From positions 124,001-188,000 of the forward strand of contig NBIV01000072.1 in assembly GCA_003194525.1 (NCBI GenBank): DNA of 64,000 nucleotides, written 5' to 3'. Position 1 is the first letter of the stretch, and every line of letters starts with the position of its first letter. A program made the position numbers and the translations under genes. The notes below the pieces were generated by a model. The model was not told the DNA's origin. It worked only from the letters and a program-made list of their open reading frames with translations, and did not search any database. Shown piece by piece: positions 9,879 to 57,803 of this stretch. The DNA comes from Gracilariopsis chorda (taxonomy: Eukaryota > Rhodophyta > Florideophyceae > Gracilariales > Gracilariaceae).

Positions 9879-10815
9879 TGTAGTGCAACGCGAAATGCGT
9901 GGAAATCACGATGATGCTACTCATAGGAGTGGGACATGATTACCGTGACGGTTCTACCATATATGAGTTGGAACCGTACGAGATGATGCCAATGGGATGG
10001 TTTACTGTGTAAAGCTTCACCTAGGAAGGTAGGAATCTATAATGGATTGCAGGATGAGTCGACGCATGTGCACGTGCGCGACAGCACCATGCTTTAGTGT
10101 TATGTTTTACTTGGGTTGACTGCTAAGGATGCCTGAAACTGGCCTGGCCACGTGTGTGGACCTGAAAAGCTGTGCACTATTGTAGATAACTGTCATAATT
10201 TATTATGGTAGTGTACCTACTTAGCTGAGCGCGACTTCGTGGTCGCGGGCACTAAGTAAAGTTAACCCGAGACTTCGGACATTCATATATGTTCTGTTTG
10301 GCCTGAGATATCCAGCTCAGGATTGTGACGTCGTTGCGCCGTGTACTACTCCTAGCAACGGGTCAGTGCATTCGGTTCGCTCAATTCAACCGCTCGGTAA
10401 ACATACAGGTACTCTGTGTTATAATTGTCGTGTGATATTTACATACCGTGGGCTACCCGTATCGCCCCTGTATTGGGTAATTTGTCCGCTACATCCTGTG
10501 CATGTGCACCCTCTGTCGGGTCTGTTTCTGCTTTCCGCACGACCAGCCGGGTGGTTTTTTCCCGTCCTTGGAAGGCACCCTTCACCGGGTATATTCTAAA
10601 CTGCCGCATCGCGTGGCATACCTGTTTCTGGTTTTACCGTCTTACTGCGTCCTTCTCACCTTTCTTTATGTACCTCTGTGATCAATCCGAAGTACCTACG
10701 GAGTTACGCCCGTATCACAGGTATACAGTGGGCTTTGTCACTGGACCTGCCTCCACAGGGAGCAAGGCCCCGGACACCTTGAGTTTGATACCCATCTTTC
10801 GGTTTTTGCACTACA
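9879..10815 (+). repeat. 5' LTR of B1
   Basis: Begins TGTAGTGCAACGC and ends TTTTGCACTACA, so the outer ten bases form an inverted repeat around the usual TG...CA. It aligns end to end with 20646-21581. The following bases (TGGTCTCCCGACC, starting two bases after the LTR) sit where a tRNA primer-binding site belongs; I could not assign the tRNA. Confidence 0.92.
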
Positions 10816-11123
10816 AGTGGTCTCCCGACCTAGAACGTTTGAACCGTGCGTGGTTACTTCAACGGAATAACCATAATTGGTTGACGTCGAAGAAGGAAGA
10901 CTCACGTGGAAGTCGAAGAACTGGTGATCAGTTGGACCATCGTGTAGTGTTCGAGTGGTCTCGGTGAAGTTTCGTTTTGTGTTTTGTGCTCCGTTCTTTG
11001 GATATCTTGTAATTGCGCTCTTCAGTACTCTGAGTGGATTGGCTCACCAATTGAGAAATGCGAACACCCTCTAAAGGTTCTTCTGCAGGATCGTCAGGGT
11101 TTTTTTAGTCTGCTTCACCGTGT

Positions 11124-18244: not shown

Positions 18245-18475
18245 ATGGTGATGGAGATCACAGAAGCGTATTCACAGGAGTTCGTCATGGAACATATCGT
18301 ACGTCATGAAACTCGTGATGGAGAACTGCAGTACCTCATCCTCTGGTATGGTTATACACCAGAGGAGAATACATGGGAACCCATAGAGCACCTCCCAAAG
18401 TCCAAAATGATATCTTATCACCGTAGAACTTGGTCGGCTCTCCCATCCACCTTGGATAATGCGCAAGTTGGATAA
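18245..18475 (+). pseudogene. B1 chromodomain
   Basis: A 76-codon reading with a classic chromodomain: EFVMEHIVRHETRDGELQ, YLILWYGYTPEENTWEP and IEHLPKSKMISYHRRTW. It ends in ...DNAQVG, matching the ...VNAQVG end of the B2 chromodomain at 33527-33859. Chromodomains at the end of Gypsy pol steer integration by binding modified histones. Here it is the last sense-strand part of B1; the gene downstream faces it on the other strand. Confidence 0.88.
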
Positions 18476-18975: not shown

Positions 18976-20454
18976 CTAATCGGATGGAGCTACAGCTCCT
19001 GTAGCAGATGCTTCTGCAACATCGCCACCCGAAGGGTGCACACCCGCCATGGGGGCGGCGCCACCGAACGCGTTCGCTTCATCATCCAACATCGGATCTT
19101 CGACGCCAACCGGAGCATTGTAATCATCACTGAAGAAGAACCTATTGGGGTGATCCTCAGTAATCACGTGTGGGGCGTTGCTTAACAGTAATGCTTGAGC
19201 ACGTGACGTCTCGCATCCTTCGTACTGGTCGAAATAGATGAAATCCCCAGCTTTGGTTGCCAATGAACTGGAGACCGGTCATAGGGAGAACGGTTACCCA
19301 TCCCGCCATTACCGTACGCCATGGTGATCCACTTCACGTGCTCAACCACATCTAGAATGTAATACAGTTCATCCACTTTCTCTTTGGAACCGAGAGCAGT
19401 GTGGAGATTGAGTGTTCGCATTACTTGTCAGAGGGGCGGAGGTAGGCATCAAACCCTACACTGGTCATATGGTTCCCTAAGGGTGAAAGAAGCAACGCCG
19501 GCAGCCCACTCGGCGAGTAATAACGACCAGTATCCAGAATTAGTATTGATGAGCATGCGCGACGCCACGTATGTAAGACAAGGAGGGAGTTCCGGGTAAC
19601 ACCCTTTAGGTACTTTAACACGAGACCTTCAATTTGGTAGGGGCACGAACCGCCCGTCGAAAGCCTGTGGCTGATATCGTTCTGCTTCGGTGTTTACGTA
19701 TGGGATCAAGTATCCGTGACAGGATCACGATTTCCGCTCAAAATGGACATAATCCGCAAACCTGTCGAGTGTATCTGAACTCCGCTCGAAGGAGGGGCCG
19801 TGCCCAGCAGAGAATATCGGTTTCGATACGAACGATACTCCTGTTAGACACCGAGGAGTCGAATGAAGCCAGTCGGTCTCCGTACGAGATTTCACAGAAG
19901 GTTCGGTATCTCGATACGTCAAATCTATACCCGTAAGGTACTCGGCTCGCATTCCACGCACGGCTTAGCCATTTGTACGCAGGCTTGTTCATCTCTTCAC
20001 TGGCCTTATCTAAGGTTTCAACTTTGTAGTCATGGATCCTCAACAGATGTGGGTCGATCGCTATGCGACCTATTCAATCGGGGGATTCGACTATGTCAAC
20101 AGGTAATCCACCGGGTAATAGACCATTGGTAAGGTACGAAGACATCAGCACGTGCTTTTCAACCGCTTCGGGGTGAAACCGTGGTGCTTTGGAGAAGCGA
20201 TAACTATCCCGCAGGGGATTGCGTACGAGGAGCATATTTTTTGACACACAACCAGAAGCATTGGTCGACACCGGCGTTGGTTCTTCTGAGTTCCAGGCCA
20301 CGGCCAATGGATCCAATATAGGACCTGTCGATTGTTGCTGCAATGGAGCCGAAGGAAAACAAATCATCTGGTGCACGCTCTTCGGCGGAGGTTGAGAAGG
20401 ACCAGCAAAGGTGGAGGCACCCGGGAGAGGGTCGGACGGAAAGTTCTTTGGCAT
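18976..20454 (-). pseudogene. B1 antisense accessory gene (homologue of the 595-aa B2 ORF)
   Basis: On the minus strand, between the chromodomain and the 3' LTR, a decayed gene can be followed in several open stretches. Its pieces match the intact ORF at 31548-33335 in order. KAPRFHPEAV corresponds to LAPWFHPVAV; FDVSRYRTFCEISYGDRL to FDVSYFRTRGEIRYGESL; CWARPLLRAEFRY to CWERQIIRAEFRY; LNLHTALG to LDLRTLLG; AGDFIYFD occurs in both; SDDYNAPVGVEDPMLDDE corresponds to SDDYYRAYGGDDPMVDNE. The likely start is near 20454, about 190 bp inside the 3' LTR. The gene has several breaks, like the rest of B1. The product is not one I recognise. Confidence 0.85.
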
Positions 20455-20645: not shown

Positions 20646-21581
20646 TGTGGTGCCACGCTAAACGTGTGGGAATCGTGAGGATGTTACTCATAAAAGTGCG
20701 ACGCGATTACCGTGACGGCTCTACCATATATGAGTTGGAACCGTACGAGATGATGCCAATGGGATGGTTTACTATGTGAAGTTTCACCTAGGAAGGTAGG
20801 AATCTATAATGGATTGCAGGATGAGTCGACCCGTGTGCACGTGCGTGACAGCACCTTGCTGTACTGTTATGGTATACTCGGGTTGACCACTAAGGGTGCC
20901 TGACACTGGCCTGGCCACGTGTGTGGACCTGAGAAGGTGTGCACTATTGTAGATAACTATCATAATATATTATGGTAGTGTACCTACGTAGCTGAGCGCG
21001 ACTTCGTTGTCGCGGGCACTAAGTAAAGCTAACCCGAGACTTCGTTCATTCATATCTGTTGAGTTTGGCCTGAGATATCCGGCTTGGGATTGTGACGTCG
21101 TTGAGCGGTGTACTACTCCTCGCGAAAGGTCAACGCATTCGGTTCACTCAATTCAACCGCTTGGTAATCATACAGATACTCTGTGTTATAATTGTCGTGT
21201 GATATTTACATACCGCGGGCTACTGGTATCGCCCCTGTATTGGGTATTTTTCTGCTACATCCTGTGCATGTGCACCCTCTTTCGGGTCTGTTTCTGCTTT
21301 CCGCACGACCAGCCGGGTGGTTTTTTCCCGTCCTTGGAAGGCACCCTTCACCGGGTACATTCTAAACTGCCACATCGCGTGGCATACCTGTCTTTGGTTT
21401 TACCGTCTTACTGCGTCCTGTTCACCTTTCTTTATGTACCTCTGTGATCAATCAGAAACACGTACAGAGTTCCGCCCGCATTACAGGTATACGGAGGGCT
21501 CTGTCACTGGGTCTGCGTCCACAGGAAGCAAGACCCCGGACACCTTGAGTGTGATACCCAACCTTCGGGTTTTGCACTACA
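20646..21581 (+). repeat. 3' LTR of B1
   Basis: Begins TGTGGTGCCACGC directly after the polypurine tract AAGGAGGGGGAGA and ends TTTTGCACTACA, followed by the ATTTT duplication. It is collinear with 9879-10815 with mostly single-base differences. Confidence 0.92.
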
Positions 21582-21586
21582 ATTTT

Positions 21587-26653: not shown

Positions 26654-29600
26654 TAATCTCCGGCTTGACGGTGGTGATGATGGTGTGACTATCCACCCAA
26701 CGATTCTCGGTATCGTCCCGGTTTTTATAGTGCACGAGGTATTCGAGCTTGCTCTTTTGAATGCGGTGGTTTAGTATCTGATCAATACTGAGGTCCTTCT
26801 TCTGGATGATTCGTTCTCTTTGCACCTGCTTCCTACTGTCTTCTGAATTGACGTTCTCATGATATGGTTTCAACAATGATACATGAAAGGTACGATGAAT
26901 TTGTTCCAACTCCTTTGGTAATTCTACTTCACAGACTCTGGATTCTGCGAATACTTTTTTAACTAAGGTCCTAAAAACTTGGGAGATAGTTTTTTTACCT
27001 GACCAGACTTTAAGTTTAAATTTCGCGTATCCAGGAGTACTTTATCTCCTTCTTTGAAGACTTGTTCTTTTGGTTTTTTGTCTGCGTCGTCTATCATTCT
27101 TAGATTACTTTCTCTTATAGCTTAATTTGCAATTTCAGTGGCGTACTTGATTCTTTCTAAGAATTTGTCCGTAGCTTCGACTGTTGTTGGAACTTCCTCA
27201 TGGTGTAAGATGTCTGTAATATGCACAGGATGTTGCCCATATTGCAGGAAGAATGGGGTCATCTTTGTTGCTTCATTTGTGTGATTATTGTATGCAAATT
27301 CAAGACCAGGGAGATATGTATCCCAATCTCTTTGAGTGTAACTAATGGAACATCGAAGCATTTCTTCTAACGTTCTGAAAGATCGTTCTGATTGACCATC
27401 AGTTTGCAGATGAAATGCTGTTGATAAGTTCAGTTTCACTTTCAAGGTTCGCATTAGTTCTTTCCAGAAACTTCCTGTAAATCTTGATTCTCGGTCTGAT
27501 ATTATTTTTCGCGGTAGTCCATGGTGTTTATACACCTCTTTATAAAATACTTCTGCTGTATCTTTCGCATTTAAATTGGATTTCATTGGTATAAAATGCG
27601 TTCTCTTTGATAGTTTGTCCACAACTACTAATATGGAACACATTTCGTTTTTGGTTTTTGGTAAATCGAATATGAAATCCATTGATATGACTTCCCACTT
27701 TTTGCTGGGAGGTGGAAATGGTCGTACTAAACCTTGTGATCGTTGATTACTACTTTTAGAAGTTTGACATTCATAGCAGTGTTTAACGTATTCCTTAATA
27801 TCGTTATTCATCTTTGGCCAGAAATAAGATCTTCTGATCAAAGCTATAGTTTTTTGAGAACCTCTATGAGCGCCCAGTATAGATGTATGACAATCATATA
27901 GAATTTGGTCTCTTAATTCCCCTTTTGGAATACATAGACGATTCTGAAGGTATAGTCTATTATTTTTTCTCTCAAATGGTTCTTTAGGGTCATTCATTAT
28001 ATTTCTAAAGAACTCATCTTGCATATAATCTGATATTAGTCTTTTTAATATTTTTTCTTGTACTTGAACTGTTGTTATATTCATCAATTTCTTTATAAAA
28101 TCAACTGATACTTCGTGTATTTCTTTGTGTTTTCTTGATAATGCATCGGCAACCTTGTTTAGTTTGCCTTTGATATATTTGATCTCGTAATCAAATTCTT
28201 GCATAAACTCAACCCATCTTGCTTGTTTTCTTGACAAACTCTTTTGCTTTTCTAAGTATTTTAAGGGATGATGATCAATATATACTATGAATTTGGCTCC
28301 ATGTAAATACGATCTCCATGTTTCTAATGCATACACAATAGCGAGTAACTCTCTCTCATGCGTAGAGTAGCCTTGCTCAGTTGCAGATAATTTCTTGAAG
28401 CAAAAGCAATGGGTCTACTTAGTTCATTTTCTGCTTGTGATAATACTGTACCAATTCCTGTTTGAGATGCGTCTGCAGCTAACTCATACGGTAGTGAGGG
28501 ATCTGCACATCTTAGAACTGGCGTATGACTTAATGCATCTTTCAGTTCTTCAAACGAATCATTTTCTTTTGAGTTCCATATAAAAGGATTCGTTTTCTTA
28601 GTTAGGTCTGTGAGGGGTGAAGCAATTTTTGAAAAATCCTTCACAAACCTTCTGTAATAATTACACAATCCTAAGAAGCTTTGAAGCTCTGTCATACTCG
28701 TGGGAATTTCCCAATTCATTATGGCTTCTGTTTTTTGTGGATTGACTTTAATTCCTTCTGTTGTAATAATATGTCCTAAATATTCGATGGATTTGTCCAT
28801 AAACTTACATTTTGATAATTTGACATACAATTTATGCTTTCTTAGATCTCAAATACTTGTTTGAGATGTCTGAGATGCTCTTCTGTGGTTTTACTATATA
28901 TTAGTATATCATCTAGATATACTAATACGAACTCGTCAAGATGTTTCCTGAATAGAATATTCATGTATGTTTGGAAGCATCCGGGAGCTCCAGTAAGACC
29001 AAACGGTGTAACTAGATATTCAAACTGACCATATCTAGTTCGGAAGGCTGTTTTCTCTATATCACCTTCTCTCATTCTTATTTGATTATATCCAGATCTG
29101 AGATCAAGGGCTGAGAATACTTTTGCTCCTCCCACTTGGTCCCAAAATTTCATCAATTCTTGGTAATGGTACTTGATTTTTTATCGTCTGCTTATTGAGA
29201 GCACGATAATCAATACACATTCTTAGTCCTCCATCTTTCTTTTTAATAAAAAGAACGGGGCTTCCCCAAGGACTTATACTTGGTCTTATGAAACCACAAG
29301 CTAATAGATCTGCAAGCTGCTTTTTCATTTCTTGTAGTTCCACCTTTGACAACTTATAAATTGTTCCCATTTTAGGTTTTGCTCCTTCTTCGAGATCTAT
29401 CCTCATTTCAACTTCTCTATGAGGAGGTAATTCTCTTGGTAGCTTCTCTGGGAAAAAATCTTCATAATTTTTTAACAGCTGTTTTAACTCAATGTTGCTT
29501 GTACTCTTAATCAAATTTGATTCACTCTTTGACTTTAACATAAAACTTTGTCTAGACTTTAACTTCACTTTAGGCTCAGACTTAGACTTGTCTGGGCTTG

Positions 29601-30252
29601 CCTTCACAACAACATGATATATCATGGATTTACTTTTCCTTACAAGCCTCGCGAATTGCTTACTGGTAAGTAGGAATGTCGGTCGGGATGTGGCCTCATA
29701 CCTACCAGATTCTGCGTCCAGAATAACTTGCTTACCTTCTAAGTTAATGAGCATGCGATTTGACTTCCAATTTATAAGTGGATTTATCTCTGATAACCAT
29801 GACTTGCCTAGGATTATGTCATACAGTATCAAATCTACCACATACGGTTTAATGTCAAAGCAAACGTCATTAATTTTTAGAGTTAGCACACTTGAACTCC
29901 TGTTCATAGAAACTAGAGTTCCATCCCACAATTCTGCTTGTAAGTTTGACTTATTAACTTGCAGATTTAACTTCTCTGCAAACTCTTTTGAGACTATAAT
30001 CTCCTCACAGCTACTGTCTACTAAGACTTTAAACTTATGTGGCTTTAAACTTTTTACTTCTCCATTGAAGATTAGTAACTTATTTTTTCTCGAGACTTTT
30101 CTTTCTTTAACTGGAGAAAATGCGCATATCTTTATAGTTTTATTTTCTTTATGGTGGATAGAAATCCTATCCTTACTTCTCTTTCTGTGCTTTTGACGAT
30201 TTAGGTAATCTTTATGAGTTGATTTATTGGGCTGCGCTAATATAGAAGGCAT
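26610..30252 (-). pseudogene. Gypsy C pol (protease, RT, RNase H, integrase, chromodomain)
   Basis: Reading the minus strand: a protease-like domain near 29800-30050 ([34 protein letters not shown]), then RT ([18 protein letters not shown] near 29200; catalytic [10 protein letters not shown] near 28920; FLGLCNYYRRFVKDFSKI near 28650). RNase H follows (LAADASQTGIGTVLSQ near 28470; YIDHHPLKYLEKQKSL near 28270). Integrase has a zinc-binding H-H-C-C (28230-27770), SMDFIFDLPKTKNEM near 27670, ISDRESRFTGSFWKEL near 27490 and TDGQSERSFRTLEEM near 27400. A GPY/F-like and chromodomain segment ends it (FHVSLLKPYHENV, LEYLVHYKNRDDTENRWV, 26690-26900). Broken in about four places. Confidence 0.9.
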
Positions 30253-30287
30253 TAGCGCTTTCTTTAGTTTTTTGGCTGGTTACCTTC

Positions 30288-30664
30288 TTAATTTCTCTTA
30301 TAATGATTTCTTGCTATGCAATCTTTTTTCTTGCATATGAAACAAAGTTTATCTTCTAAACATCGTTTCTTTTCTTCTTTTGATACGAAGGGTATCCTTC
30401 TCATATTAAGATTTCCAATTTGCATTGACGTTGGCACATTGCTTCCAGAACTACTACTTCCCGAACGATTTCCTCCCCAGGTATCGTTACGGAATATGTG
30501 ATCTATTTTATCTGCAATCTTCATTGCTTTTTGAATACCAGTAGGTTCAGACCTTATTGCTTCAATTTTGGTTCTTGTTTTTAGTCCTTGACTATAATGA
30601 AATAATTGTTCTGATATACTCATGGTTGGTATCTGTAATAACCATTTTGTGAATTCTTCGTTAT
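30288..30664 (-). pseudogene. Gypsy C gag, C-terminal part with zinc knuckle
   Basis: Reads NNEEFTKWLLQIPTMSISEQ at the cut edge, then LFHYSQGLKTRTKIEAIRSE and a Ser/Gly-rich linker, ending in a cysteine-rich knuckle (near 30300-30345). This is the usual end of a retrotrans_gag domain. The B2 LTR replaces the upstream part. Confidence 0.8.
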
Positions 30665-31491
30665 TGTGGTGCAATGCCCCAAAGGGGAAAAACACCGAAA
30701 GACGTTCGGCATCTTCCTCTCACGAGGTGAACCCAGTTGGGTAGAGCCCTCCCAGAGGTGTCACGGCGAAGCCGGTTTGTAAGACCAGGGACACCTGTCG
30801 CGACTTGCGCAGGGAGGTGAAGGCGAAGAATCGGTATCCGCGTGAGCGGGATGTGGTCCTCGGTAGAGGTATGTTTCCACGTAAGTGGGGGTGTGTGAGC
30901 GGATGCGCACACGAGGGCCGCGGATAGCGGGAGGTGCTACCCTAAAAAGGGGGAAAAGGAAGGGCGAAGAGGAGGAAGAGAGGACGATGTGAGTCGCGAG
31001 AGCGACGAGCAGATACGGCAATGCCGGTGGACAGGACTCCCTATACAGGGCGAAACACCAATATGATTGGAACAATTATACTCCCGGTGATGGGTTTCTT
31101 TAGATGTGCAAGGGGGTTAGATGTCCCGTGGTTTACGGGGTTTCCCTCCAAGGAGGAGTAGAGTACGCGCGCAAGCGGCAACAACTAGAGCCAATTCCCC
31201 AGGTTGGGGTCCCTTCTTGGGGAAGGTTTACTGGTGCGACGGCAGTGCGCCGTCGCACTAAGTACTAGCTTCCCAGAAATGGGTGTGAAAATAATAAATA
31301 TTATTAACTAAAATACTCCACATTTCGTGGCAACATCCACTACTGTGGCCAACCGCCAATTGACCCAAAACCGTGTCCCACGTGTCCATATCCACCATAG
31401 TGGGGCGTAATTCATATACACACTACACAACCGATAATATCGGGAAAGCGTTCAAGTACCCAGAATCCCTGCCGGAGGGCGTTGCACTTCA
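30665..31491 (-). repeat. 3' LTR of Gypsy B2 (827 bp)
   Basis: In the element's sense (minus strand) the LTR begins TGAAGTGCAACGCCC, right after the polypurine tract AGGGGGGGGATA (complement of 31492-31503). It ends GGGGCATTGCACCACA at 30665. Similar LTRs occur at 49717-50512, 55191-55974, 56065-56862 and about 59400-60137. The only AT-rich block (AATAATAAATATTATTAA, near 31288-31308) is the best candidate for promoter or polyadenylation signals on either strand. Confidence 0.88.
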
Positions 31492-31547: not shown

Positions 31548-33335
31548 ATGGGTGATAAAAGCGCGTGCTCTGTCTCCGGTTCTCCGGTAAATCCCTCTGC
31601 ACCAGAGTCATCAAGCACACAAACGACAACAACAGCCACCCTCCAAAAGGGAAAAATGAACGACGACAACAACATCAACAACCACAGCCAACCTCCGAGA
31701 CTTCTCGGGCGATACACCACCGGTTTCCGGTCAGTTCCCCTGCCTCGGGGCGATCGAAATCCGGTACAACCGGGGAATATGGCTGCCGCAGCCGACCATC
31801 CCTTCGCATTACCACCTTCGGTGGTGTCCTCCGGAACCACTCCGGTGTCCAACTGGCCAACCTACAACACCCTGGTGGGGCTCAACCCGATGAATCGGAA
31901 TCACGCGTCGCGCCTGCGCCTTGCCCCGTGGTTTCACCCGGTCGCTGTCCTCCATGAGGGATTGGTCACCGCGTATGCGGATGGCTCAGACACCCTTCCG
32001 GGGGATCTGCCCAGGGCAGTCACCACGTTATGGGATTGGCGTCACCGGATTGCGATTCCGCGTCACCATCTCCGAAGAAATTCGGGCGAGACCGTCGCTG
32101 CAGCACAGACCGCGTTGACGCGCATGGCGTACCAACGGCAGAGCCGGGCTCCATTCGATGTACCGGTCCCACCGGAGTTTGGCTTCGACGTTAGCTACTT
32201 CCGCACTCGCGGGGAGATTAGGTACGGCGAGAGCCTGTTCCGCCTCGAGACCCTCGCTTGGAGGAATTTTCCCGCAGCGCGGCAAGAAGCCCTTTGCTGG
32301 GAGCGACAGATTATTCGGGCGGAGTTCAGGTACCTTCCCCGGCAATACCGGTCCAACTTTCTCCAAAACTTCATCCGCTACGAGCGGCGTTGGCAATCCC
32401 GATTCGGGTATTTTATCCCGTATCAGAACGTGGAGATAGAGCGGATTGCGCCGCCTCACCGACTAGGTCGGTATGTAGCACTCCCCGAGTGGTGGCGCTT
32501 CCATGAAGCCTGCTGGGGGTGCTACATAGAACTCCCGCCGGTACTTACGTACCTCGGTTCGCTGCTCATGCAGGATCCCCGGTCGGGGTTGTGGTCCGTA
32601 GTGGTTACGGAGTGGGCGGCCCGCACTGCGGCTTATATCCTCAACGAGGCGTACGACCAGTATCGTCTCTGGTTCCTTCAACCGCGTGTGCGGGCAGCGA
32701 TCCGAAACCTGGATCTTCGCACCCTCCTTGGGGGCCAGGCCAACAATGAAGAGGTCCTCCAATTACTTGGGTACATCGACAGCGTTAGCTGGAGTGAGGT
32801 CCTGCTGGAGCAAAGCGGTCATCTGGAGGGCGGTAGCAGTAACACCGGTGGTCCGGGACTCGGTAGAAACACCGCCCTTGCGGGGGATTTTATCTACTTC
32901 GACCCCTGGGAGTTCCGGGAAATTTCCTCCGAGGAGGCGCGCGAGCTTCGCGATACGCCCCGGCATGTGCCGGAAGACCAGACGGTGGAATACGTCGATT
33001 CTGACGACTACTACCGCGCATACGGCGGGGATGACCCAATGGTCGATAACGAACCGGAAGAACCCGGGGAGATGGACGTAGAGGAGACCGGCACTAGCGC
33101 GGAAGCTTTCCCAGAGGGGGTATCTCTGGCCGAGCCGGCTGCTGACCCTTCGGCGGCAAGTGCCCGACCTTCTATCCCCAGCGGGGTGACTGCGAATGAA
33201 AACGAGATCATCGCACGTTTCCTCCGGGGTGCCGGTCTTAGCGCTGCCGAGGTATTGGGGGATATCACCACCATGGCGGACGCGTTGGCCTACCGCCTTG
33301 CTGGGGGTTACGCCGCGGACGATGGGGGTGAGTGA
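31548..33335 (+). CDS. B2 antisense accessory protein, 595 aa, intact, unknown family
   Basis: Uninterrupted ORF on the strand opposite to B2 pol, starting 57 bp inside the 3' LTR (ATG at 31548, context GAAAATGGG). Residues 1 to about 90 are Ser/Thr/Asn-rich. The body (about 110-440) is rich in aromatic and Arg residues, with GFDVSYFRTRGEIRYGES and CWERQIIRAEFRYLPRQY. About 445-530 is strongly acidic (YVDSDDYYRAYGGDDPMVDN, EEPGEMDVEE). The last 50 residues form a predicted small helical unit (ENEIIARFLRGAGLSAAEVL). It has no zinc cluster, catalytic motif or membrane segment that I recognise. A decayed homologue occupies the same place in B1 (18976-20454), so it is a conserved gene of this lineage. 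The acidic region allows a role as transcription regulator, which is only a guess. It cannot be gag, because B1 has its own gag. Confidence 0.85.
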   Translation: MGDKSACSVSGSPVNPSAPESSSTQTTTTATLQKGKMNDDNNINNHSQPPRLLGRYTTGFRSVPLPRGDRNPVQPGNMAAAADHPFALPPSVVSSGTTPVSNWPTYNTLVGLNPMNRNHASRLRLAPWFHPVAVLHEGLVTAYADGSDTLPGDLPRAVTTLWDWRHRIAIPRHHLRRNSGETVAAAQTALTRMAYQRQSRAPFDVPVPPEFGFDVSYFRTRGEIRYGESLFRLETLAWRNFPAARQEALCWERQIIRAEFRYLPRQYRSNFLQNFIRYERRWQSRFGYFIPYQNVEIERIAPPHRLGRYVALPEWWRFHEACWGCYIELPPVLTYLGSLLMQDPRSGLWSVVVTEWAARTAAYILNEAYDQYRLWFLQPRVRAAIRNLDLRTLLGGQANNEEVLQLLGYIDSVSWSEVLLEQSGHLEGGSSNTGGPGLGRNTALAGDFIYFDPWEFREISSEEARELRDTPRHVPEDQTVEYVDSDDYYRAYGGDDPMVDNEPEEPGEMDVEETGTSAEAFPEGVSLAEPAADPSAASARPSIPSGVTANENEIIARFLRGAGLSAAEVLGDITTMADALAYRLAGGYAADDGGE

Positions 33336-33422: not shown

Positions 33423-33428
33423 AATAAA
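33423..33428 (+). terminator. polyadenylation signal AATAAA for the antisense ORF
   Basis: AATAAA lies 88 bp after the stop of the 595-aa ORF and about 100 bp before the stop of the oppositely directed chromodomain reading. Its position fits 3'-end formation of the antisense transcript before it runs into the pol coding region. Confidence 0.55.
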
Positions 33429-33526: not shown

Positions 33527-34080
33527 TTATCCAACTTGGGCATTAACCAGCGTGGCTGGGGCTGCAGTTCCCGTTTGACGGTGGTATCGCAGGACCTGCG
33601 ACCGTGGGAGGTTTTCGATTGGCTCCCACGTATCCCCACTGGGGTCATACCCGTACCAGCGGACGCGGTATTGTAGAATACCATCCTGGTCCCAGGTGTG
33701 TCCGACAAGTCGGTCTACTACGAACTCTCGTTCGTAGACCTGCCGGCCGTGCCGGGTGGTGGTTGTACTTCCCTGCGGAGGCTGCCCGCTGTGCGGTATA
33801 ATGTCCCTTAGCAGGGTGTTCGGCGATAACTCCGGCGTTGCCGTGCGCTGTGATCGCAAGAACGTCCAATACGAACGTTTCTGCTGTTTTGGCGAAGTGC
33901 CTTGGTAACAGGACGTAATTGACCTTGAAAATCGCTTCTTCGACGTGGTTATTCAAATTTTGCAATCTATGAGCCAGTCTCTGGCTTTGCACCAATTGTT
34001 AACGGCTTCGTCTCTTGCTTTTTCAGCATTGGCAGTCCCGTTGATACTACTGAAAATGCACAAACTATGCAAACGATTAG
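33527..34080 (-). pseudogene. B2 chromodomain and integrase tail
   Basis: The minus strand at 33527-33859 reads a chromodomain: EREFVVDRLVGHTWDQDGIL, YRVRWYGYDPSGDTWEP, IENLPRSQVLRYHRQTG, ending VNAQVG. Upstream (33860 to about 34080) is an integrase C-terminal segment with KARDEAVNNWCKARD and KVNYVLLPRHFAKTAETF. Closely similar in arrangement and wording to B1. The reading has a few breaks. Confidence 0.85.
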
Positions 34081-37104: not shown

Positions 37105-37318
37105 TGTGAGGACACGCAATTTGTACGGCTGCACTATCGGCTGTTGTAATTTAGTGTCAGTTGCATTTGTAATCTTGTCCAACTCTCTTGATTACAAATG
37201 CAGACCTCTCCTAATTACGTACATTTTAATTAGAATTGTAGGACTATAAAGAGCGGCCGGCGGCGCTGACCCGAGCACCACCGGCCGGAGGAATCAACAC
37301 CCTCCACAACCTTTCACA
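37105..37318 (+). repeat. 5' LTR of Copia 1
   Basis: Starts TGTGAGGACACGC, ends CCTTTCACA. Contains a 13-bp perfect inverted repeat (TGCATTTGTAATC at 37162-37174 with GATTACAAATGCA at 37190-37202, 15-base loop), a TATA-like ACTATAAAG near 37243, and a GC-rich CGGCCGGCGGCG block. Same sequence as 42315-42528. Confidence 0.95.
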
Positions 37319-37987
37319 TGGTAGCACTCGCTCAACCCTCCCCGCCGCCTCTCCCCTCGACAACCGCTGACCAACCTTCAACCGGCGCTCCGCAACGCTC
37401 TGTACCGAACCATTCCTTGGACCCACGGAAGCATCAACATACAACCTTTCTCTTCTCGCTGATAAACGGCTTTCTTTTTTCATCTTGTATCTTTGTGGTA
37501 TTTGTTTTTCTTCTTTTTTTCATCTCTTTTCGTCGAACGGATAAAGGCGTGGTAGCTTGCAAGCTGAGCACCGGTACGGGAATCGATTGGGCACTTGAAG
37601 TAATCTGCTAGATTTGACATTCCTTCCGGATAACCGGCTCTGCTGGGGGAGGCTCTGTCTGCTAGTGGTGACACGGTGTGTCGTCGTTTGGCCCAAGCTA
37701 CCGCATACGCCGGTGGAGTTTTGTACTATCTCCTTCAACCTATCGCTCCGCAGAACGCCGCGCAGCATTCCTGCAAGAGGCCAGAAGGGGTCAACTGGTG
37801 AAAACTTATCTTCAGTTAGTAACCTCCCTTGGAAGCTTCGTAAGGATTCAAGGCACTTTGCTTCTTTTCGCGAGAAGCTTAGCAGGCAGATCAAAGCGAC
37901 TCACCGGGAGAGTGTGACCCGGTTCCAGGGGTTGAACCCTTAGGGTAGCGGAGGTAGTTTCTCCTGTCAGTGCGCCCGCTCGAAGGA

Positions 37988-38062
37988 AGACTAATAAAAG
38001 GTACCTCGCTAGCCAGAGGTCAAGCAGACTAACAAAAGGTACCTCGATAACCAGAGGTCAAT
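37988..38062 (+). repeat. two-copy tandem repeat in the Copia 1 leader
   Basis: A unit of about 38 bp (AGACTAAYAAAAGGTACCTC then CAGAGGTCA) occurs twice in a row, 31 bp before the start codon of the polyprotein. It lies in the 775-bp leader between the 5' LTR and the ORF, where packaging and translation signals usually sit. Confidence 0.85.
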
Positions 38063-38092
38063 TCACTCTTTCTCTACTCACAAGGCATCAAC

Positions 38093-41000
38093 ATGAGTGA
38101 GAACAGAGAAGAAGGCAAGCGCACTATTCCCCGCCTTAAAGGATCCTCGGACTATTACACATGGAGGATCTACATAAGGGACTTGATGAATGTTGACCAA
38201 GTTCTCTTCGTCTTAACCGAACCCAGACCATTGGAAGGCGAGAGCTCAGCCCAAGCCCGCCGCCGATGGGATGATGCGGATCGAAAAGCTCGTTCGATTA
38301 TTGTTCAAAACCTTGGAACACAACCAGTAGTTGCCGTTTCTGAATTACTGGAACGCGAACAATGTTCTGCGTTGGACGTCTGGAGGAAACTGGAGGGTAC
38401 GTACAAGAAGGATAACATCCAAACCAAGATGAACCTTCGACAGCGCCTGAACAATCTCGTTTTCAAGGACGATGGAAATATCCTTGAACATCTCCACGAA
38501 ATGGAAACAATCTTTCTAGAACTGGCACGCCTAGGAGATGCTCTCAACGATAAGGAGAGAACTGCTTGCTTACTCAGAACTCTACCAGACTCTCTTATGG
38601 CTATCACACTACTTGCAGACGCCAACGATATGGAACATGACCAAGTTGCTTCTTTGATAAGATCAGAAATGGACAGACGCAAACACAGGGACTCGAGAAA
38701 CCAAACAAGCCCCGCACCTCCACCACCAAATACACAGCACCCCTACATGGCTACGAGAAAGACATCCTTAATTTCCTCCGTGAAGAAAAGGAAGTCTAAA
38801 TCCATTAGATGTTGGCATTGTGGAAAACTAGGTCACATTCGTTCCGAATGCCGGTTGAGAAAAGAAAACAACCCCAACCAAAACCATCGCAGGGGTCCCC
38901 AAGCCAACAAACACAAACACCAACCATCTAGTACTGGAAACAGGAACTGGGACTCCAACGGAGGATCAAACAAACCCTCAAGTCACTACAACCGCAACCC
39001 CCAGCCCCGAGGTTTCGTAGCTATTGCCGAAGCTAAATATTGTTCAGTGAACAATGGAACTACAACCTGGCTGGATTGTGGAGCGACTCATGTGTTTGTA
39101 AACGACAGAAACCTCTTCTGGGATTATGAGCCTGTGGAAAATGAGTCCGTCCGAACATGCGACAGACAATCGGAAATAGTTGGAGCAGGGACAATTATGC
39201 TGCCAGTAGGAGACGGAATAAGGTTACCTGCGAAGCACACACCTTCGTTTGACTCAAACCTTATTTCATTATACGTCTTATCACAGCACACAAACGTTTC
39301 CTTTTCCAACGAAGACTCCTTTCATGGATTTGTCCTAAGTGACGTCAAAAACGGGAAAGAACTTCATCGCTGCAAAGCTAAAAACGGTTTGTACCCACTA
39401 CCAAAGCCGATCGCTCCATCGACAGCCCAAACCGCACAAGTCATGCCCGGAAACACAGCAATTGACTGGCATGAAAAACTCGGACACCCCGGCAAGGACA
39501 GGTTGCTTCGCACAATCCCGCAATCTTCAGGAATTCCTAACCTGCCACCGACGGAAATCGAAAACATACATTGCAGTCCATGCATTGAGGCAAAATCGAG
39601 GCGATCTCCAACCCAACGCTTGCATTCAGTGGCAAACCACCCCTTAGCTTTGACACACACAGACCTCACAGGCCCAATATCCCCACCTTCGTTACAAGGA
39701 TCAAAGTACATGCAGGTACTACTTGACGACAATACAAGGGCATCATCAATATACTTCCTGACTAAGAAAGACCAATTCACGCAATCAATACGTTGGTACA
39801 AGGCTCTCGCAGAAAACGAACAACCCCAAAACCGTTTGTACCGCGTTCGCCTCGACGGAGCTGGTGAGAATAGGTCTAATGAGTTCATCCATTACGCATT
39901 AGATAACGGGATCCTCTTGGAGTACACTCCTCCGCATGCACATGAGTCTAACGGCGCAGCGGAGAAAATTATCCAAGACTTATGGAAAACGGCCAGAACT
40001 CTGCTCTTTGCATCAAAATTACCACTCGAATTATGGGAAGAAGCGATATCGCATGCAAACTGGCTGCGAAACCGCCTTCCAAACTCACGACTCGACATGA
40101 GAATCCCCTACAAAGAGTGGTTTGGACAAAATCCATCGTTCGATACATTACTGAAGTTTGGACAAGATGGCCACGCCTTTATATACAGGTCGGAAACCAT
40201 TCCCAACAAGAAAATACTCCCACGCGCCATCTACGGCCACTTCGTTGGAATGGAGAGCTTCCAAACACTGTATCGGATATACATACCTTCCCAAAAGAAA
40301 GTAATCATGGTGAGGCAAAGGGACTTTAAGATGGCCAAGAAAATACTGCCTTCCATCAACGAGCTTCTCGACTTCTCGTCCTTGGGCAGGACAGAAGCAG
40401 AAGAACGTAATGACGAAGTGGATGAAGAACACTTGGACTCAGCTTTGGAACATTGTCTAGTGGCACACACTCGTTCAACAAATAACAGTGAGCTGGACAA
40501 AGTACCAAAGACATTTTCCCAAGCAAGGACAATACCAGAATGGGCAGACGCAATCGACCGAGAGTATGACGCTCTCATCGAACGCAAAACATGGAAGCTC
40601 ATTGACCGAAAACCAGGAATGAATCCAATCCCATTCCTTTGGACATTTACGGCAAAACAACTCAGCGCAAAACCTTTGGATATCCTTCCTAAGGCACGTT
40701 GTGTAGCGCGAGGGGACATGCAGAAACCGTACATCGATTACGACCCTGAAAACCTTTATGCCCCAGTCGCAAGACTTGAGACAATAAGGTTGGCATTGGC
40801 AAAGGCTGCTGCGCAAGACCTTTTGCTGGAAACAATGGATATCAGCAACGCCTACCTGTACGGCGACCTCGATGAACCATTGATCATGGAACAACCCCAG
40901 AACTCGTCTGGAACTTCATACGTTCCGGGAAAAGTATGTCTACTGCTGAAATCATTATACGGGGCAAAGCAGGCTGGACAGATCTGGGGATCGTTTCTAC

Positions 41001-42073
41001 ACACGACGTTGATCACACTGCAATTCCGTCAATCGAAAACGGACTACCGTCTCTATATATATCGATCAAGCAGTGGGATACTGATCCTCGTCATCGTTGT
41101 GGACGACATATTGATGTCGTCTGACTCGAGGTCTCTTCTGGACGACTTTAAAGCCGAAATGAAGAGACGTTTTCAAGTGAAACTATTGGGAGAAGCCAAA
41201 TCATTCGTCGGACTTCATCTCAGTCGGGACAGACATGGCATCAAGGTTAGTCAGGAAACGTATGTGGATAAGCTGCTACGAGAATATAACCTCGGAAACG
41301 CAAACCCTGTGCAAACACCGTTGCACCATGGCTACTCTATCATGGGTACAAGCGAACAGGAACAGAAGCTGCCTCCTCCACTCCACCGGAAATATCGGAA
41401 ACTGGTAGGACAACTGATGTATCTAGCCGTGGCTTCTAGACCAGACGTCATGTTTGCAGCTTCAATGCTGGCGAGACAGGTTCATAAACCTTGTTTAAGG
41501 CACTTAGCTTTGGCAAAGCGAGTGCTTAGATATTTAAAGGGAACAAAGAACCTTTGTATGCACTTTCCCGCAACCAGTGTATCACCTTTGGAAGGTTTTT
41601 GCGATGCGGACTGGGCAGGATGCCGAGAAACAAGGAAGTCAACGACGGGAGTACTGATCAAAGTCAACGATGCTCCAATCCTATGGACTAGCAAGAAACA
41701 GACAATCGTGGCTTTGTCTTCGGGAGAAGCTGAATACGTTGCTTTATCGTATTGCGCTAAGTTAGTGACTTGGATCCGAAGACTATTTTGGGAGCTTCAT
41801 CATTGCCAAATTCTGCAAGAAGAGCCTATCGGAATGTATCCCGTCTGTATCTATACAGACAGTTCTACGGCAAACTCTATTGCGAAGACTTCGAAAACGT
41901 CTGAGAGAAACAAACATATTTCTCTGAAATACCATCATGTCAAAGACCTTGTGAAGTCTGGAATGCTGAAAATACTTGAGATCAGAACTGATTCCCAGCC
42001 GGCTGACATAATGACAAAAGCTGCTAACCGAGAAAGCTTATACCAACTTTCTGTTTTGTGCGGACTACAATAA
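38093..42073 (+). CDS. Copia 1 gag-pol polyprotein (1326 aa)
   Basis: Single ORF with the Copia order gag, protease, integrase, RT, RNase H. Residues 1-210 form a UBN2-type gag (LKGSSDYYTWRIYIRDL, VWRKLEGTYKKDN). A zinc knuckle CWHCGKLGHIRSEC lies near 241. The protease segment is near 325 (TTWLDCGATHVF). The gag-pre-integrase region is near 458 (WHEKLGHPGKDRLL with a Cys pair). Integrase has HTDLTGP (about 522), VRLDGAGENRSNEF (about 586) and SNGAAEKI (about 618). RT has KARCVARGDMQ (about 868), NLYAPVARLETIRLAL (about 887) and catalytic VVDDILMSS (about 1001). RNase H has GFCDADWAGCRETRKST (about 1168), LSSGEAEYVALS (about 1208), IYTDSSTANSIAK (about 1253) and PADIMTKA near the end. The ATG at 38093 (AACATGAGT) is the first in frame after the leader. 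Confidence 0.96.
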   Translation: MSENREEGKRTIPRLKGSSDYYTWRIYIRDLMNVDQVLFVLTEPRPLEGESSAQARRRWDDADRKARSIIVQNLGTQPVVAVSELLEREQCSALDVWRKLEGTYKKDNIQTKMNLRQRLNNLVFKDDGNILEHLHEMETIFLELARLGDALNDKERTACLLRTLPDSLMAITLLADANDMEHDQVASLIRSEMDRRKHRDSRNQTSPAPPPPNTQHPYMATRKTSLISSVKKRKSKSIRCWHCGKLGHIRSECRLRKENNPNQNHRRGPQANKHKHQPSSTGNRNWDSNGGSNKPSSHYNRNPQPRGFVAIAEAKYCSVNNGTTTWLDCGATHVFVNDRNLFWDYEPVENESVRTCDRQSEIVGAGTIMLPVGDGIRLPAKHTPSFDSNLISLYVLSQHTNVSFSNEDSFHGFVLSDVKNGKELHRCKAKNGLYPLPKPIAPSTAQTAQVMPGNTAIDWHEKLGHPGKDRLLRTIPQSSGIPNLPPTEIENIHCSPCIEAKSRRSPTQRLHSVANHPLALTHTDLTGPISPPSLQGSKYMQVLLDDNTRASSIYFLTKKDQFTQSIRWYKALAENEQPQNRLYRVRLDGAGENRSNEFIHYALDNGILLEYTPPHAHESNGAAEKIIQDLWKTARTLLFASKLPLELWEEAISHANWLRNRLPNSRLDMRIPYKEWFGQNPSFDTLLKFGQDGHAFIYRSETIPNKKILPRAIYGHFVGMESFQTLYRIYIPSQKKVIMVRQRDFKMAKKILPSINELLDFSSLGRTEAEERNDEVDEEHLDSALEHCLVAHTRSTNNSELDKVPKTFSQARTIPEWADAIDREYDALIERKTWKLIDRKPGMNPIPFLWTFTAKQLSAKPLDILPKARCVARGDMQKPYIDYDPENLYAPVARLETIRLALAKAAAQDLLLETMDISNAYLYGDLDEPLIMEQPQNSSGTSYVPGKVCLLLKSLYGAKQAGQIWGSFLHTTLITLQFRQSKTDYRLYIYRSSSGILILVIVVDDILMSSDSRSLLDDFKAEMKRRFQVKLLGEAKSFVGLHLSRDRHGIKVSQETYVDKLLREYNLGNANPVQTPLHHGYSIMGTSEQEQKLPPPLHRKYRKLVGQLMYLAVASRPDVMFAASMLARQVHKPCLRHLALAKRVLRYLKGTKNLCMHFPATSVSPLEGFCDADWAGCRETRKSTTGVLIKVNDAPILWTSKKQTIVALSSGEAEYVALSYCAKLVTWIRRLFWELHHCQILQEEPIGMYPVCIYTDSSTANSIAKTSKTSERNKHISLKYHHVKDLVKSGMLKILEIRTDSQPADIMTKAANRESLYQLSVLCGLQ

Positions 42074-42314
42074 CTGTTGAACATTTATTGACCAATCTTT
42101 TTTTGTTTGTTTCTTGTTTTGTTTTTGTTTCTATGCGTTTTATCCAGATTATCTGTTCTTGAAAACACTATTTTGGACTTAGATAAGTATTACATTGCTA
42201 TACCTTTTCCTAACTATGCAGCTTTTTATCCTATATGGTTTTTGCTGATATTTAGGTTTTTAACGGTGGCATTAATGATGCGCAAATAGCTTTAGAGTTG
42301 TTTGCGAGGGACAG

Positions 42315-42528
42315 TGTGAGGACACGCAATTTGTACGGCTGCACTATCGGCTGTTGTAATTTAGTGTCAGTTGCATTTGTAATCTTGTCCAACTCTCTTG
42401 ATTACAAATGCAGACCTCTCCTAATTACGTACATTTTAATTAGAATTGTAGGACTATAAAGAGCGGCCGGCGGCGCTGACCCGAGCACCACCGGCCGGAG
42501 GAATCAACACCCTCCACAACCTTTCACA
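42315..42528 (+). repeat. 3' LTR of Copia 1
   Basis: 214 bp, TGTGAGG...TTTCACA, no difference from the 5' LTR found by eye. It is followed by the GTTGT target duplication. Confidence 0.95.
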
Positions 42529-55119: not shown

Positions 55120-55190
55120 ACAGTATGTGCACGTACAGCAAACATACCGTAGCCACATATTTTGGTAGTACCTACTTTCGAACTGCATCT

Positions 55191-55974
55191 TTTAGTGTAA
55201 TGACGGGAAGCAGAAGTGCACCGAAAGACGTGCAGGATCTTTCCTGGTTAGAAGTGAGCCCAGTTGGGTAGAGCCCTTCCAGGAGTGGCACGATTATGTC
55301 GGGTTGTAAGGCCAGGCCCACCCGTCGCAACTTGCCCAGGGAGGTCGAGGCAAGAATCAGGTATCCGCAGGAGTGGTGTATAAGTGTGGTCTTCCTCTAG
55401 AGAGGTGAGGTTTCCGCGTTAGTGGCACGCGCAAACACGAGCCGTGGGTAGCGGGAAAGCCACCCTGTGAAGGGAAACGAAAGGGGAAGCTGAGGTATGA
55501 GTGTCTTGAAGAAGACTAACGGCAGTGCCAGTAAATAAACATTATACAAGGCGAACACCAAGACAGTTGGAATATCAATCCAAATACTCGGGTCCTTTAG
55601 ATAGGCAAGGGGGTTAGACTTTCCGAATGCTATGGTGCTTCCCTCCAAGGAGGAGTAGAGAAGACACAAAGAGGGTCAGGTCTAGAGCCAATTCCCCAGG
55701 TTGGGGTCCCTTGTTGGGAAAGGTTTTCTGGTGCCACGGCAACTCGCTGGCACAATAAGTACTAGCCATCTCCGAAATGGGTGTGAAAATAATAAATAAA
55801 ATTAACTACATTACTCCACTTTCGTGGTTCATGCCCACTACTGTGGCCAATCGCCAATTGATTCTTTCTGTCCCCTGTGTCAAATGTACTATTAGTGGTG
55901 GTAGTTCACATTACCGAAACATTCGGGAAATCAACGAAGTACCTGGAATTGCTCCCTGAGGGCATTGCACTTCT
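55191..55974 (-). repeat. B2-family LTR, left arm of a large inverted repeat
   Basis: Lies in the same orientation as the B2 LTR at 30665-31491. Its inner end has GAGGGCATTGCACTT (to 55974); its outer end is slightly decayed (TTTAGTGTAATGACGGG). It is about 93% identical by eye to the reverse complement of 56065-56862. Confidence 0.88.
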
Positions 55975-56064
55975 GGTTTTGTTTATTTGCATAGATCTAC
56001 TCCGGTTTATCTTTGGATTAGTGCCCTCATTATGTTTCTACGAGTTGACTGGACATCTCAGATG

Positions 56065-56862
56065 TGAAGGTCAATGCCCTCAAGGAGGGATACTCTTCGC
56101 ACTTGGTTGATTTCCCTAATATTTCGGTAATGTAGTCATTGCATGAACTACCACCACTAATAGTACATTGGACACAGGGGACAGACAAGAGTCAATTGGC
56201 GGTTGGCCACAGTAGTGGGCATGAACTACGAAAGTGGAGTAGTGTAGTTAATTTTATTTATTATTTTCACACCCATTTCGGAGATGGCTAGTACTTATTG
56301 CGCCAGCGAGTTGCCGTGGCACCAGAAAACCTTTCCCAACAAGGGACCCCACCCTGGGGAATTGGCTCTAGACCTGACCCTCTTTGTGTCTTCTCTACTC
56401 CTCCTTGGAGGGAAGCACCATAGCATTTGGAAAGTCTAACCCCCTTGCCTATCTAAAGGACCCGAGTATTCGGATTGATATTCCAACTGTCTTGGTGTTC
56501 GCCTTGCATAAGGTTTATTTACTGGCACTGCCGTTAGTCTTCTTCACGACACTCATACCTCAGCTTCCCCTTTCGTTTCCCTTTACAGGGTGGCTTTTCC
56601 GCTACCGACGGCTCGTGTTCGCGCGTGCCACTAACGTGGAAACCTCACCTCTCTAGAGGACCACCACCCTCATACACCGCTCCTACGGATACCCCATTCT
56701 TGCCTCGACCTCCCTGCGCAAGTGGCGAAGGGTGGCCTCGGCCTTACAACCCCACATAATCGTGCCACTCCCGGGAGGGCGCTACCCAACTGGGCTCATC
56801 TCTAACGAGGAAAGATCCGGCACGTCTTTCGGTGCACCCCTGCTTCCGGGCCTTGCACTACA
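56065..56862 (+). repeat. B2-family LTR, right arm of a large inverted repeat
   Basis: Starts TGAAGGTCAATGCCC and ends GGGCCTTGCACTACA. It faces the LTR at 55191-55974 across a 90-bp spacer that shows no gene. No plain target duplication surrounds it. Confidence 0.88.
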
Positions 56863-57803
56863 AAAACTAAATCTGCGGCATCGTATACAAACTTTATCAG
56901 TTCATCAACACACTATGTCAACCATTTACCAATCACACGCTGCTCAAACGCTACACATGCCGTCAATTTCTAAGCTTCAGCAGCCTTTCTTCGTCAGGAA
57001 AGAATCAACTCCTGTCCAACTAACCCGGCAAACTACATATTGACGATAGTTTGAGGTCCATGAGTCCAATTTATGACATATTTTACCAGTAGCAGACTTT
57101 CAAAACCCTTATACACATGATAAAATTTAAGGCTATAAAATTTTAGCAACTGTAGTATTCTATAGTGTCTCTTATGAGAGAAAAGTGGGACACAAGCCAG
57201 GGAAGAACATTTTTTATGTGCGGAAGAGATGTTCTAGTCATCCATAACCGTAGATGAACATAGCGGAAAAAATGGGATTTCATGGCAACTACTTTCAAAA
57301 AATAGTTGCAACATCACTTGAGCGTCTCATAAAACCATTTATAGGCATTCGTTTTGACGACGCACATGGAGAGATAGCTGAATGGAGGCCGCAGAGCCAT
57401 CCCTTGTTTGCAGCCTGCACCACACGTTCCAACGTTATCTATTAAAAAAGAACCTCGCTATACTCGCGCCTCATTGGCCAGGTAAAACAGCGCAGCAGGT
57501 GACTGCATAGGATCCGATAGATACATTATAGCCGTTCAAACAATAATGTAGCATGGAGCCACATTATCGGGAACGAAGATCAATAAAATGGTCATATCTC
57601 GACAACGCAGGACCCAAATGCAACGGCGCCAAGTCCACAAACCCGGCTCCCAATTGCTTTCTATCACGAGAGCGCAACTTTGCTGTAGCAAGTCGCAAAG
57701 TCATCTACGCGGCTTCTGTTTAACCCCTTTCAACAACCCAAATACGTACATTTCATAATGTGAACAAGATCTTTACAGCATCTGGCGTCTATTTTTCAAA
57801 TAT
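56863..57803. other. 0.9 kb without a recognised gene
   Basis: Short ORFs only (57254-57445 and others) with no motif I recognise. No RNA gene or repeat was identified. Confidence 0.4.

What the first reader, a model, noticed from the sequence alone, without database searches (positions are those of the whole stretch)
31548..33335. Antisense gene shared by two members of one Gypsy lineage
Between chromodomain and 3' LTR, B2 holds an intact 595-codon ORF on the opposite strand. B1 (18976-20454) holds a decayed homologue in the same place and direction. Matching words in order (FHPEAV/FHPVAV, RAEFRY, AGDFIYFD, DDPM) show one gene that has persisted through the lineage's divergence, not a chance ORF. 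I recognise no known family. Antisense genes at this place are known in a few plant Gypsy elements and, in retroviruses, as HBZ of HTLV-1. This one may be a new accessory system of the lineage.
Basis: partly seen in the sequence, partly recalled or inferred. Interest (0 to 1): 0.9.

Follow-up and report, generated by a model that had tools for sequence, protein, structure and literature searches.

The report
Antisense gene of seaweed jumping elements
A family of jumping DNA elements in a red seaweed carries a real, long-conserved extra gene on the opposite strand, which makes a protein of unknown kind with almost no lysine, and a sister form of the element that has lost just this gene has also multiplied.

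Summary
Confirmed, and larger than reported. The host is the red alga Gracilariopsis chorda. The 595-codon frame is an antisense gene (aORF) of an 11.5 kb Ty3/Gypsy chromodomain element: 807-bp LTRs, 5-bp target duplications, ATG 56 bp inside the 3' LTR, convergent with pol. An aORF 30-mer occurs at 317 places; 57 of the 74 best-scored copies have no stop. Six subfamilies carry it in the same place and direction. Replacement/silent ratio among B2 copies is 0.22 (pol 0.40). No known family reached a cut-off; no fold could be predicted.

Two points go beyond the finding. (1) A derivative that lost almost exactly this gene has its junction at 126 places; one such copy keeps gag and pol open. The gene is selected yet dispensable in cis, suggesting trans action or escape from self-control. 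(2) Family proteins are nearly lysine-free (0-5 K; longest K-free run 187-610 aa), unlike the same element's gag and pol, and the lysine/asparagine codon ratio is lowest in the coding frame.

[quoted passage not shown] this is a new variant. Expression and function are untested.

The parts
31548..33335 (+). Antisense accessory gene (aORF), 595 codons; three lysines, all in the first 36 residues
   Evidence: an internal 30-mer occurs at 317 places in the genome
30665..31491 (-). 3' LTR of the B2 element (element sense is the minus strand); should hold or adjoin the antisense promoter, because the ATG lies 56 bp from the LTR edge in the full copy measured
   Evidence: all 807 LTR positions matched, 92% identity. 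The promoter is inference
33530..33850 (-). End of pol with the chromodomain, convergent with the aORF; the element is broken off beyond it
   Evidence: 92.5% identity over 107 aa; Pfam Chromo PF00385 E 2e-10 in the full copy
33423..33428 (+). AATAAA 88 bp after the aORF stop: possible poly(A) signal of an antisense transcript
   Evidence: in 19 of 20 fetched B2 copies and at +92 in the one D copy; not in the A2, C or B1 stretches read, and in A only at +890 in one of two copies
19078..20397 (-). Decayed homologue of the aORF in element B1 (pieces 20397-19771, 19760-19329, 19251-19078)
   Evidence: E 3e-50; five stops in the pieces
18263..18472 (+). Chromodomain end of B1 pol, convergent with the B1 aORF relic
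   Evidence: 53.5% identity to the B2 pol C-terminus, E 2e-19
9879..10816 (+). 5' LTR of B1
   Evidence: 90.2% identical to 20646-21582
20646..21582 (+). 3' LTR of B1

Best explanation
The frame is a true protein-coding accessory gene of a chromodomain Gypsy lineage of gracilarioid red algae. It is read from an antisense promoter in or beside the 3' LTR toward pol, and makes a soluble, arginine-rich, nearly lysine-free protein of about 66 kDa. The protein most likely works in trans as a regulatory or host-facing accessory factor for the element family (a regulatory role is what the aORF papers suggest for the plant cases). Full elements keep it under purifying selection. A deletion derivative that still has gag and pol spreads without it, drawing on protein made by full siblings. 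The lysine-poor make-up suggests a protein shaped to escape ubiquitin tagging. Shown: the gene, its place, its age within the family, selection on the protein, the lysine depletion, the multiplied deletion form. Inferred: antisense promoter, expression, solubility, trans action, the reason for the lysine depletion.
For: Complete elements with target duplications and LTRs 99.6% and 99.75% identical. All 74 scored matches cover at least 586 of 595 residues in one frame, 57 of 74 without a stop (74 of 1882 candidates were scored, best first). With a distant query, 86 of 98 scored matches have no stop. Replacement/silent ratio 0.22 in the aORF and 0.40 in pol; four of five wrong aORF frames give 1.1-2.2, the mirror frame 0.35. 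B2 versus A: 0.26-0.30 in 16 of 16 pairs. Same convergent place in A, A2, B1, B2, C and D. G. domingensis protein grouped with A+B2, 100/100. Deletion junction at 126 places, 0 in the reversed control; three junction copies with an 1875-codon pol frame, one of them also with a 728-codon gag frame. Lysine 0-0.9% in 17 of 17 family proteins (8 of them B2 copies) versus 3.4-9.9% in six other ORFs; the AAR/AAY codon ratio is lowest in the coding frame in 4 of 4 subfamilies. No long hydrophobic stretch.
Against: No RNA data; no promoter shown. The spread of the aORF-less form shows that the gene is not needed in cis, and could equally mean that it is a brake or is dispensable for long periods. The A-A pair (ratio 0.94) and the C-C pair (0.58) show little or no excess of silent changes; recent decay may explain it but it is not support. 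Trans action is not tested. Lysine depletion is strong in B2 and D (P about 2e-4 each) but weak when A and C are taken alone (P 0.04 each), and it may have other causes. The AATAAA near the stop is shared by B2 and D only.
Confidence: 0.6

Rival explanations
1. The gene is a brake: its protein or antisense transcript limits the copy number of the element (as HBZ, by a listing's abstract, antagonises Tax activities in HTLV-1), and the deletion derivative is an escape mutant that multiplied because it lost the brake.
For: The derivative lost almost exactly the aORF while copies with open pol, one also with open gag, exist, and its junction is at 126 places. An antisense transcript from the aORF would run toward pol.
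Against: Purifying selection on the protein through subfamily divergence is hard to explain for a gene whose loss pays; places with the aORF 30-mer outnumber junction places (317 against 126), though the former include fragments.
Confidence: 0.2
2. The protein is a structural or movement-type protein of the particle (a second capsid-like or Env-like product) rather than a regulator.
For: Long conserved core with many invariant residues; such a protein could also be supplied in trans to the deletion form.
Against: No strongly hydrophobic segment (maximum 19-residue mean 1.06); no profile match to the element's gag (the gag side is one sequence, so a weak test); no Pfam match above cut-off and no PDB sequence match with the larger alignment. 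No fold could be predicted.
Confidence: 0.12
3. Only the antisense RNA matters (dsRNA/siRNA or transcription interference); the open frame is incidental.
For: Antisense transcripts with such roles are discussed for other elements (PMC7264820, passages read).
Against: Frame-specific excess of silent changes and lysine avoidance strongest in the coding frame show selection on the protein.
Confidence: 0.03
4. The frame is a host gene or another mobile element that was inserted by chance near the LTR.
For: No known family; origin unknown.
Against: Same place and direction in six subfamilies, hundreds of copies; the six relatives in the protein collection are from gracilarioid algae or unnamed records (only the 8000 best candidates were scored).
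Confidence: 0.03

Closest known systems
Antisense ORFs (aORF-3R) of plant Ty3/Gypsy elements: maize Grande gene23, RIRE2, Silene Retand, PvRetro13
   Same: Between pol and 3' LTR, antisense, in many copies and several species, function unknown (PMC7264820: passages and one section read; PMC11963269: passages read).
   Different: Retand elements are non-chromovirus and nearly all encode a TRP28 domain antisense; here a red-algal chromodomain element, no TRP28 match, lysine-poor, and a multiplied natural deletion of just the gene.
Boty/BcGypsy1 antisense gene brtn of Botrytis cinerea
   Same: Antisense additional gene in a fungal Gypsy element, listed among aORF-3Rs (PMC7264820); one BcGypsy1 consensus lacks its beginning (PMC8365987, passages read).
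   Different: Homology to brtn was not tested directly (its sequence was not fetched); no named fungal protein is among the six relatives.
HBZ of HTLV-1
   Same: Antisense gene; an antisense promoter lies in the HTLV 3' LTR (PMC7264820 passage). HBZ papers themselves were seen only in the listing.
   Different: HBZ is a basic leucine zipper protein of a retrovirus; no Pfam bZIP match here. A title says HBZ stability is regulated by the E3 ligase UBR5.
Lysine-desert proteins (mycobacteriophage proteins, VHL, SOCS1)
   Same: Meets the published sequence definition, lysine-free for at least 150 aa or 50% of length (PMC10665810, abstract and passages read): 17 of 17 by the 150-aa rule, 13 of 17 by the 50% rule.
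   Different: No sequence relation shown; no ubiquitin-system motif was tested.

Membership tests
[quoted passage not shown]
   B2 in full copies; chromodomain end convergent in A, A2, B1, C, D, one copy each
Antisense ORF between pol and 3' LTR (aORF-3R) | Kept in many copies with sequence conservation like that of other element proteins | tested here: met
   ratio 0.22 versus 0.40 for pol. Not in all: 126 places have the deletion junction, and 202 of 645 RT places are accounted for by neither count
Antisense ORF between pol and 3' LTR (aORF-3R) | Antisense transcription / nuclear protein | not testable with these tools
   No RNA data or cell assay
Retand antisense protein (TRP28) | Pfam PF04195 (Transposase 28) domain | tested here: not met
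   not among the three families matched by any of 11 members at E up to 10 (HMMER filters apply)
Chromovirus (Ty3/Gypsy with chromodomain) | RT, RNase H, integrase, then C-terminal chromodomain in pol | tested here: met
   overlapping pieces of one copy: RVT_1 4e-37, RT_RNaseH 1e-36, Integrase_H2C2 2e-13, rve 1e-11, Chromo 2e-10, in that order
HBZ-type bZIP antisense protein | Basic leucine zipper domain | tested here: not met
   no Pfam bZIP match in 11 members
Env-like additional protein | Sense orientation and transmembrane segments | tested here: not met
   Antisense; maximum 19-residue hydropathy 1.06
Lysine-desert protein | Lysine-free run of at least 150 aa or 50% of the sequence | tested here: met
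   17 of 17 by the 150-aa rule, 13 of 17 by the 50% rule
Lysine-desert protein | Escape from ubiquitin tagging | not testable with these tools
   Needs a turnover assay

The most novel reading that the evidence does not exclude
The antisense gene makes a trans-acting counter-defence protein that has been purged of lysines so that the host ubiquitin system cannot remove it, perhaps because it works inside that system like an accessory substrate receptor. Full elements pay for it; a form with gag and pol that deleted the gene is a 'cheater' that lives on it. This would be a natural helper/cheater pair within one retrotransposon family, the public good being an antisense-coded, lysine-free accessory protein.
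Probability: 0.2. Interest if true: 0.88.

Novelty: new variant of a known kind. Interest (0 to 1): 0.66.

Why it matters
What antisense genes do for Gypsy elements is an open question in the aORF papers seen here (PMC7264820, PMC11963269). This lineage offers a natural test: sister forms in one genome that differ by one deletion of the gene, both multiplied and, in the few copies dated, both recent. It adds red algae to the hosts of such genes, and the lysine depletion gives a physical clue to function. No paper on such a gene in red algae was seen in the searches (of only the first 20 of 154 titles were seen; the library lacks most subscription journals).

Tried and rejected
Rejected: chance ORF; antisense RNA alone; Env-like protein; relation to the element's own gag (weak test); relatives in viral contigs (9 stretches matched a pattern, none confirmed). 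Families: Pfam gave only DUF6220 below cut-off (E 0.025, 3 of 11 members) and two single chance-level matches; PHROGs, tried with 4 proteins, gave two matches at E 0.22 and 0.26; PDB sequences none with one protein, CNOT2 at E 0.84 with the 5-row alignment, none with the 11-row alignment. The deletion junction was looked at for a spliced-out intron: by my reading it shows a four-base microhomology, not GT-AG. Whether subfamily A lacks pol was considered because no chromodomain lies within about 1 kb of its aORF; a further 2 kb showed one, convergent. Poly(A) signal: near the stop in B2 and D only, so weak support.

Full report
Identity of the genome. The window is part of contig C72 of a 91.3 Mb assembly. 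A Gracilariopsis chorda protein (BWQ96_03215, P0003) matches contig C30 at 100% over its first 491 residues, and the contig length given for P0003 (445,473) equals that of C30. The host is therefore taken to be the red alga G. chorda.

The element. A full copy in C110 spans 161397-172903, 11,507 bp, with 807-bp LTRs 99.6% identical and the five-base duplication CTTGT on both sides; a second copy in C28 has LTRs 99.75% identical and the duplication ACAGA. In the C110 copy pol is one open frame of 1875 codons holding reverse transcriptase, RNase H, integrase and a C-terminal chromodomain. The gag frame is 728 codons in most of the 90 scored matches and 471 in the C110 copy. The aORF lies on the other strand: its ATG is 56 bp inside the LTR edge and its stop is about 190 bp from the pol stop, tail to tail. 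In A and C copies the ATG lies some 45-50 bp from the likely LTR end (my reading of bases printed). A promoter of an antisense transcript should therefore lie in or beside the LTR; this is inference. The window copy is a fragment of such an element.

How common it is. A search with the window protein scored 74 of 1882 candidates: all 74 cover at least 586 of 595 residues in one frame at 92-100% identity, and 57 of 74 have no stop (best-scored first, so biased to intact copies). An aORF-internal 30-mer occurs at 317 places with up to 3 mismatches and an RT 30-mer of the same element at 645, with 0 in the reversed controls. A query with the more distant P0005 scored 98 of 1475 candidates at 45-54% identity, 86 of 98 without a stop; of the four of these that were fetched, two are subfamily C, one D and one a diverged B2 copy. 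A query with P0003 gave 82 matches, among them six A copies at 93-100%, a seventh partial one, relatives at 61-71% that mostly hold stops, and the B2 copies.

Same place in six subfamilies. The chromodomain end of pol is convergent with the aORF in B2, B1, C (L043), D (L045), A2 (L036) and A (L049). For A, A2, C and D this rests on one copy each.

Relatives elsewhere. Two searches of 5.8 billion proteins found six relatives: two annotated in G. chorda, one in Gracilaria domingensis, and three from records without a name (only the 8000 candidates sharing most words were scored). In a tree of 15 rows the G. domingensis protein groups with A and B2 to the exclusion of D (100/100; its place inside that group is unresolved), and one unnamed protein groups with C and B1 (99/98). 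So at least the split of D and of C/B1 from A+B2 probably predates the split of Gracilaria and Gracilariopsis, if the elements are inherited vertically. B1, P0005, P0004, D and A2 have long branches, and B1 an odd composition, so their places are unsure.

Selection. Against one copy (L009), 11 of the other 24 B2 copies in hand, those covering pol, give replacement/silent ratios (pN/pS) of 0.22 for the aORF (141 silent, 94 replacement) and 0.40 for pol; the other frames of the aORF give 1.10, 1.40, 1.28, 2.23, and 0.35 for the mirror frame that shares third positions. Among 13 sequences (8 of 25 B2 copies, two A, two C, one D), the 28 B2-B2 pairs range from 0.18 to 0.58 and the 16 B2-A pairs from 0.26 to 0.30; pairs with C or D are often saturated; the A-A pair is 0.94 and the C-C pair 0.58.

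A natural deletion of the gene. Next to a D element in C725 lies a B2-type element in which about 1.77 kb is missing: from about 17 bp beyond the aORF stop to about 12 codons after its ATG, joined at a short microhomology. The 30-base junction, with up to 3 mismatches, occurs at 126 places (59 exact), with 0 in the reversed control, so one deletion was most likely copied many times; some places may be duplicated assembly segments. Three junction copies (C23, C64, C32) have an 1875-codon pol frame (150 of 1806 candidates were scored), and the C32 copy also has a 728-codon gag frame at the expected distance. Seven places with pol frames of 1875 codons or more adjoin stop-free aORFs. In the one deletion copy dated (C23) the two LTR stretches are 99.1% identical, and the 3' one is 98.4% identical to that of L009; internal sequence lies before its 5' LTR, so it may be part of a tandem and the dating is rough. 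202 of 645 RT places are explained by neither count (fragments, diverged copies or other deletions).

Lysine depletion. Seventeen family proteins (8 B2, 2 A, 2 C, 1 D, 4 from the protein collection) have 0-5 lysines in 419-638 residues (0-0.9%); the longest lysine-free run is 187-610 residues; in 25 of 25 B2 copies it is 365-591. Pol, gag and four other ORFs of the window have 3.4-9.9% lysine and runs of at most 128. Given base composition by codon position, four subfamily representatives hold 11 lysines where 42.3 are expected (Poisson P 1e-8, overstated because they are related); alone, B2 and D give P about 2e-4, A and C about 0.04; gag and pol have more than expected. The ratio of AAA/AAG to AAC/AAT is 0-0.19 in the coding frame and 0.44-1.8 in the other five frames, in 4 of 4; in absolute number AAA/AAG is equally low in one other frame of A and of C. 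So the avoidance acts on the protein. Published deserts of this kind are found in the ubiquitin system and in mycobacteriophages (PMC10665810, abstract and passages).

Interpretation. The gene is real, old in the lineage and selected for its protein, but not needed in cis. I favour a trans-acting accessory protein with the deletion form as its user; a self-limiting brake is the main rival. Fold, expression and partners are unknown.

Noticed in passing
window 37105-42528: A Copia element with one 1326-codon frame and 214-bp direct repeats 100% identical (37105-37318 and 42315-42528): probably a very recent insertion.
   Followed up: no
window 55190-56863: Two LTR-like arms of 677 bp in inverted orientation, 93% alike, 320 bp apart, related to the B2 LTR (about 74%), plus related pieces near 49.7-50.5 kb.
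   Followed up: no
L046 and L041 (C725:3200-6700); C189 near 148095-150385: An aORF-less B2 element sits just upstream of the ATG of a D-type aORF; the same spacing occurs in C189, so this looks like a duplicated segment or an assembly duplicate.
   Followed up: partly
L034/L049 (C231, about 107730-109160): In subfamily A about 1.4 kb lies between the aORF and the pol end, against 0.2 kb in B2; its first kilobase has no similarity to the B2 element or the window.
   Followed up: partly
L047 (C23:40-920): Internal 3' sequence precedes the 5' LTR of an aORF-less element, as if two elements shared an LTR in tandem.
   Followed up: no
window 27122-30695 (-): A second, distant Gypsy element (27-42% to B2 pol) lies directly beside the B2 fragment on the same strand, which makes the boundary easy to misread.
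   Followed up: no
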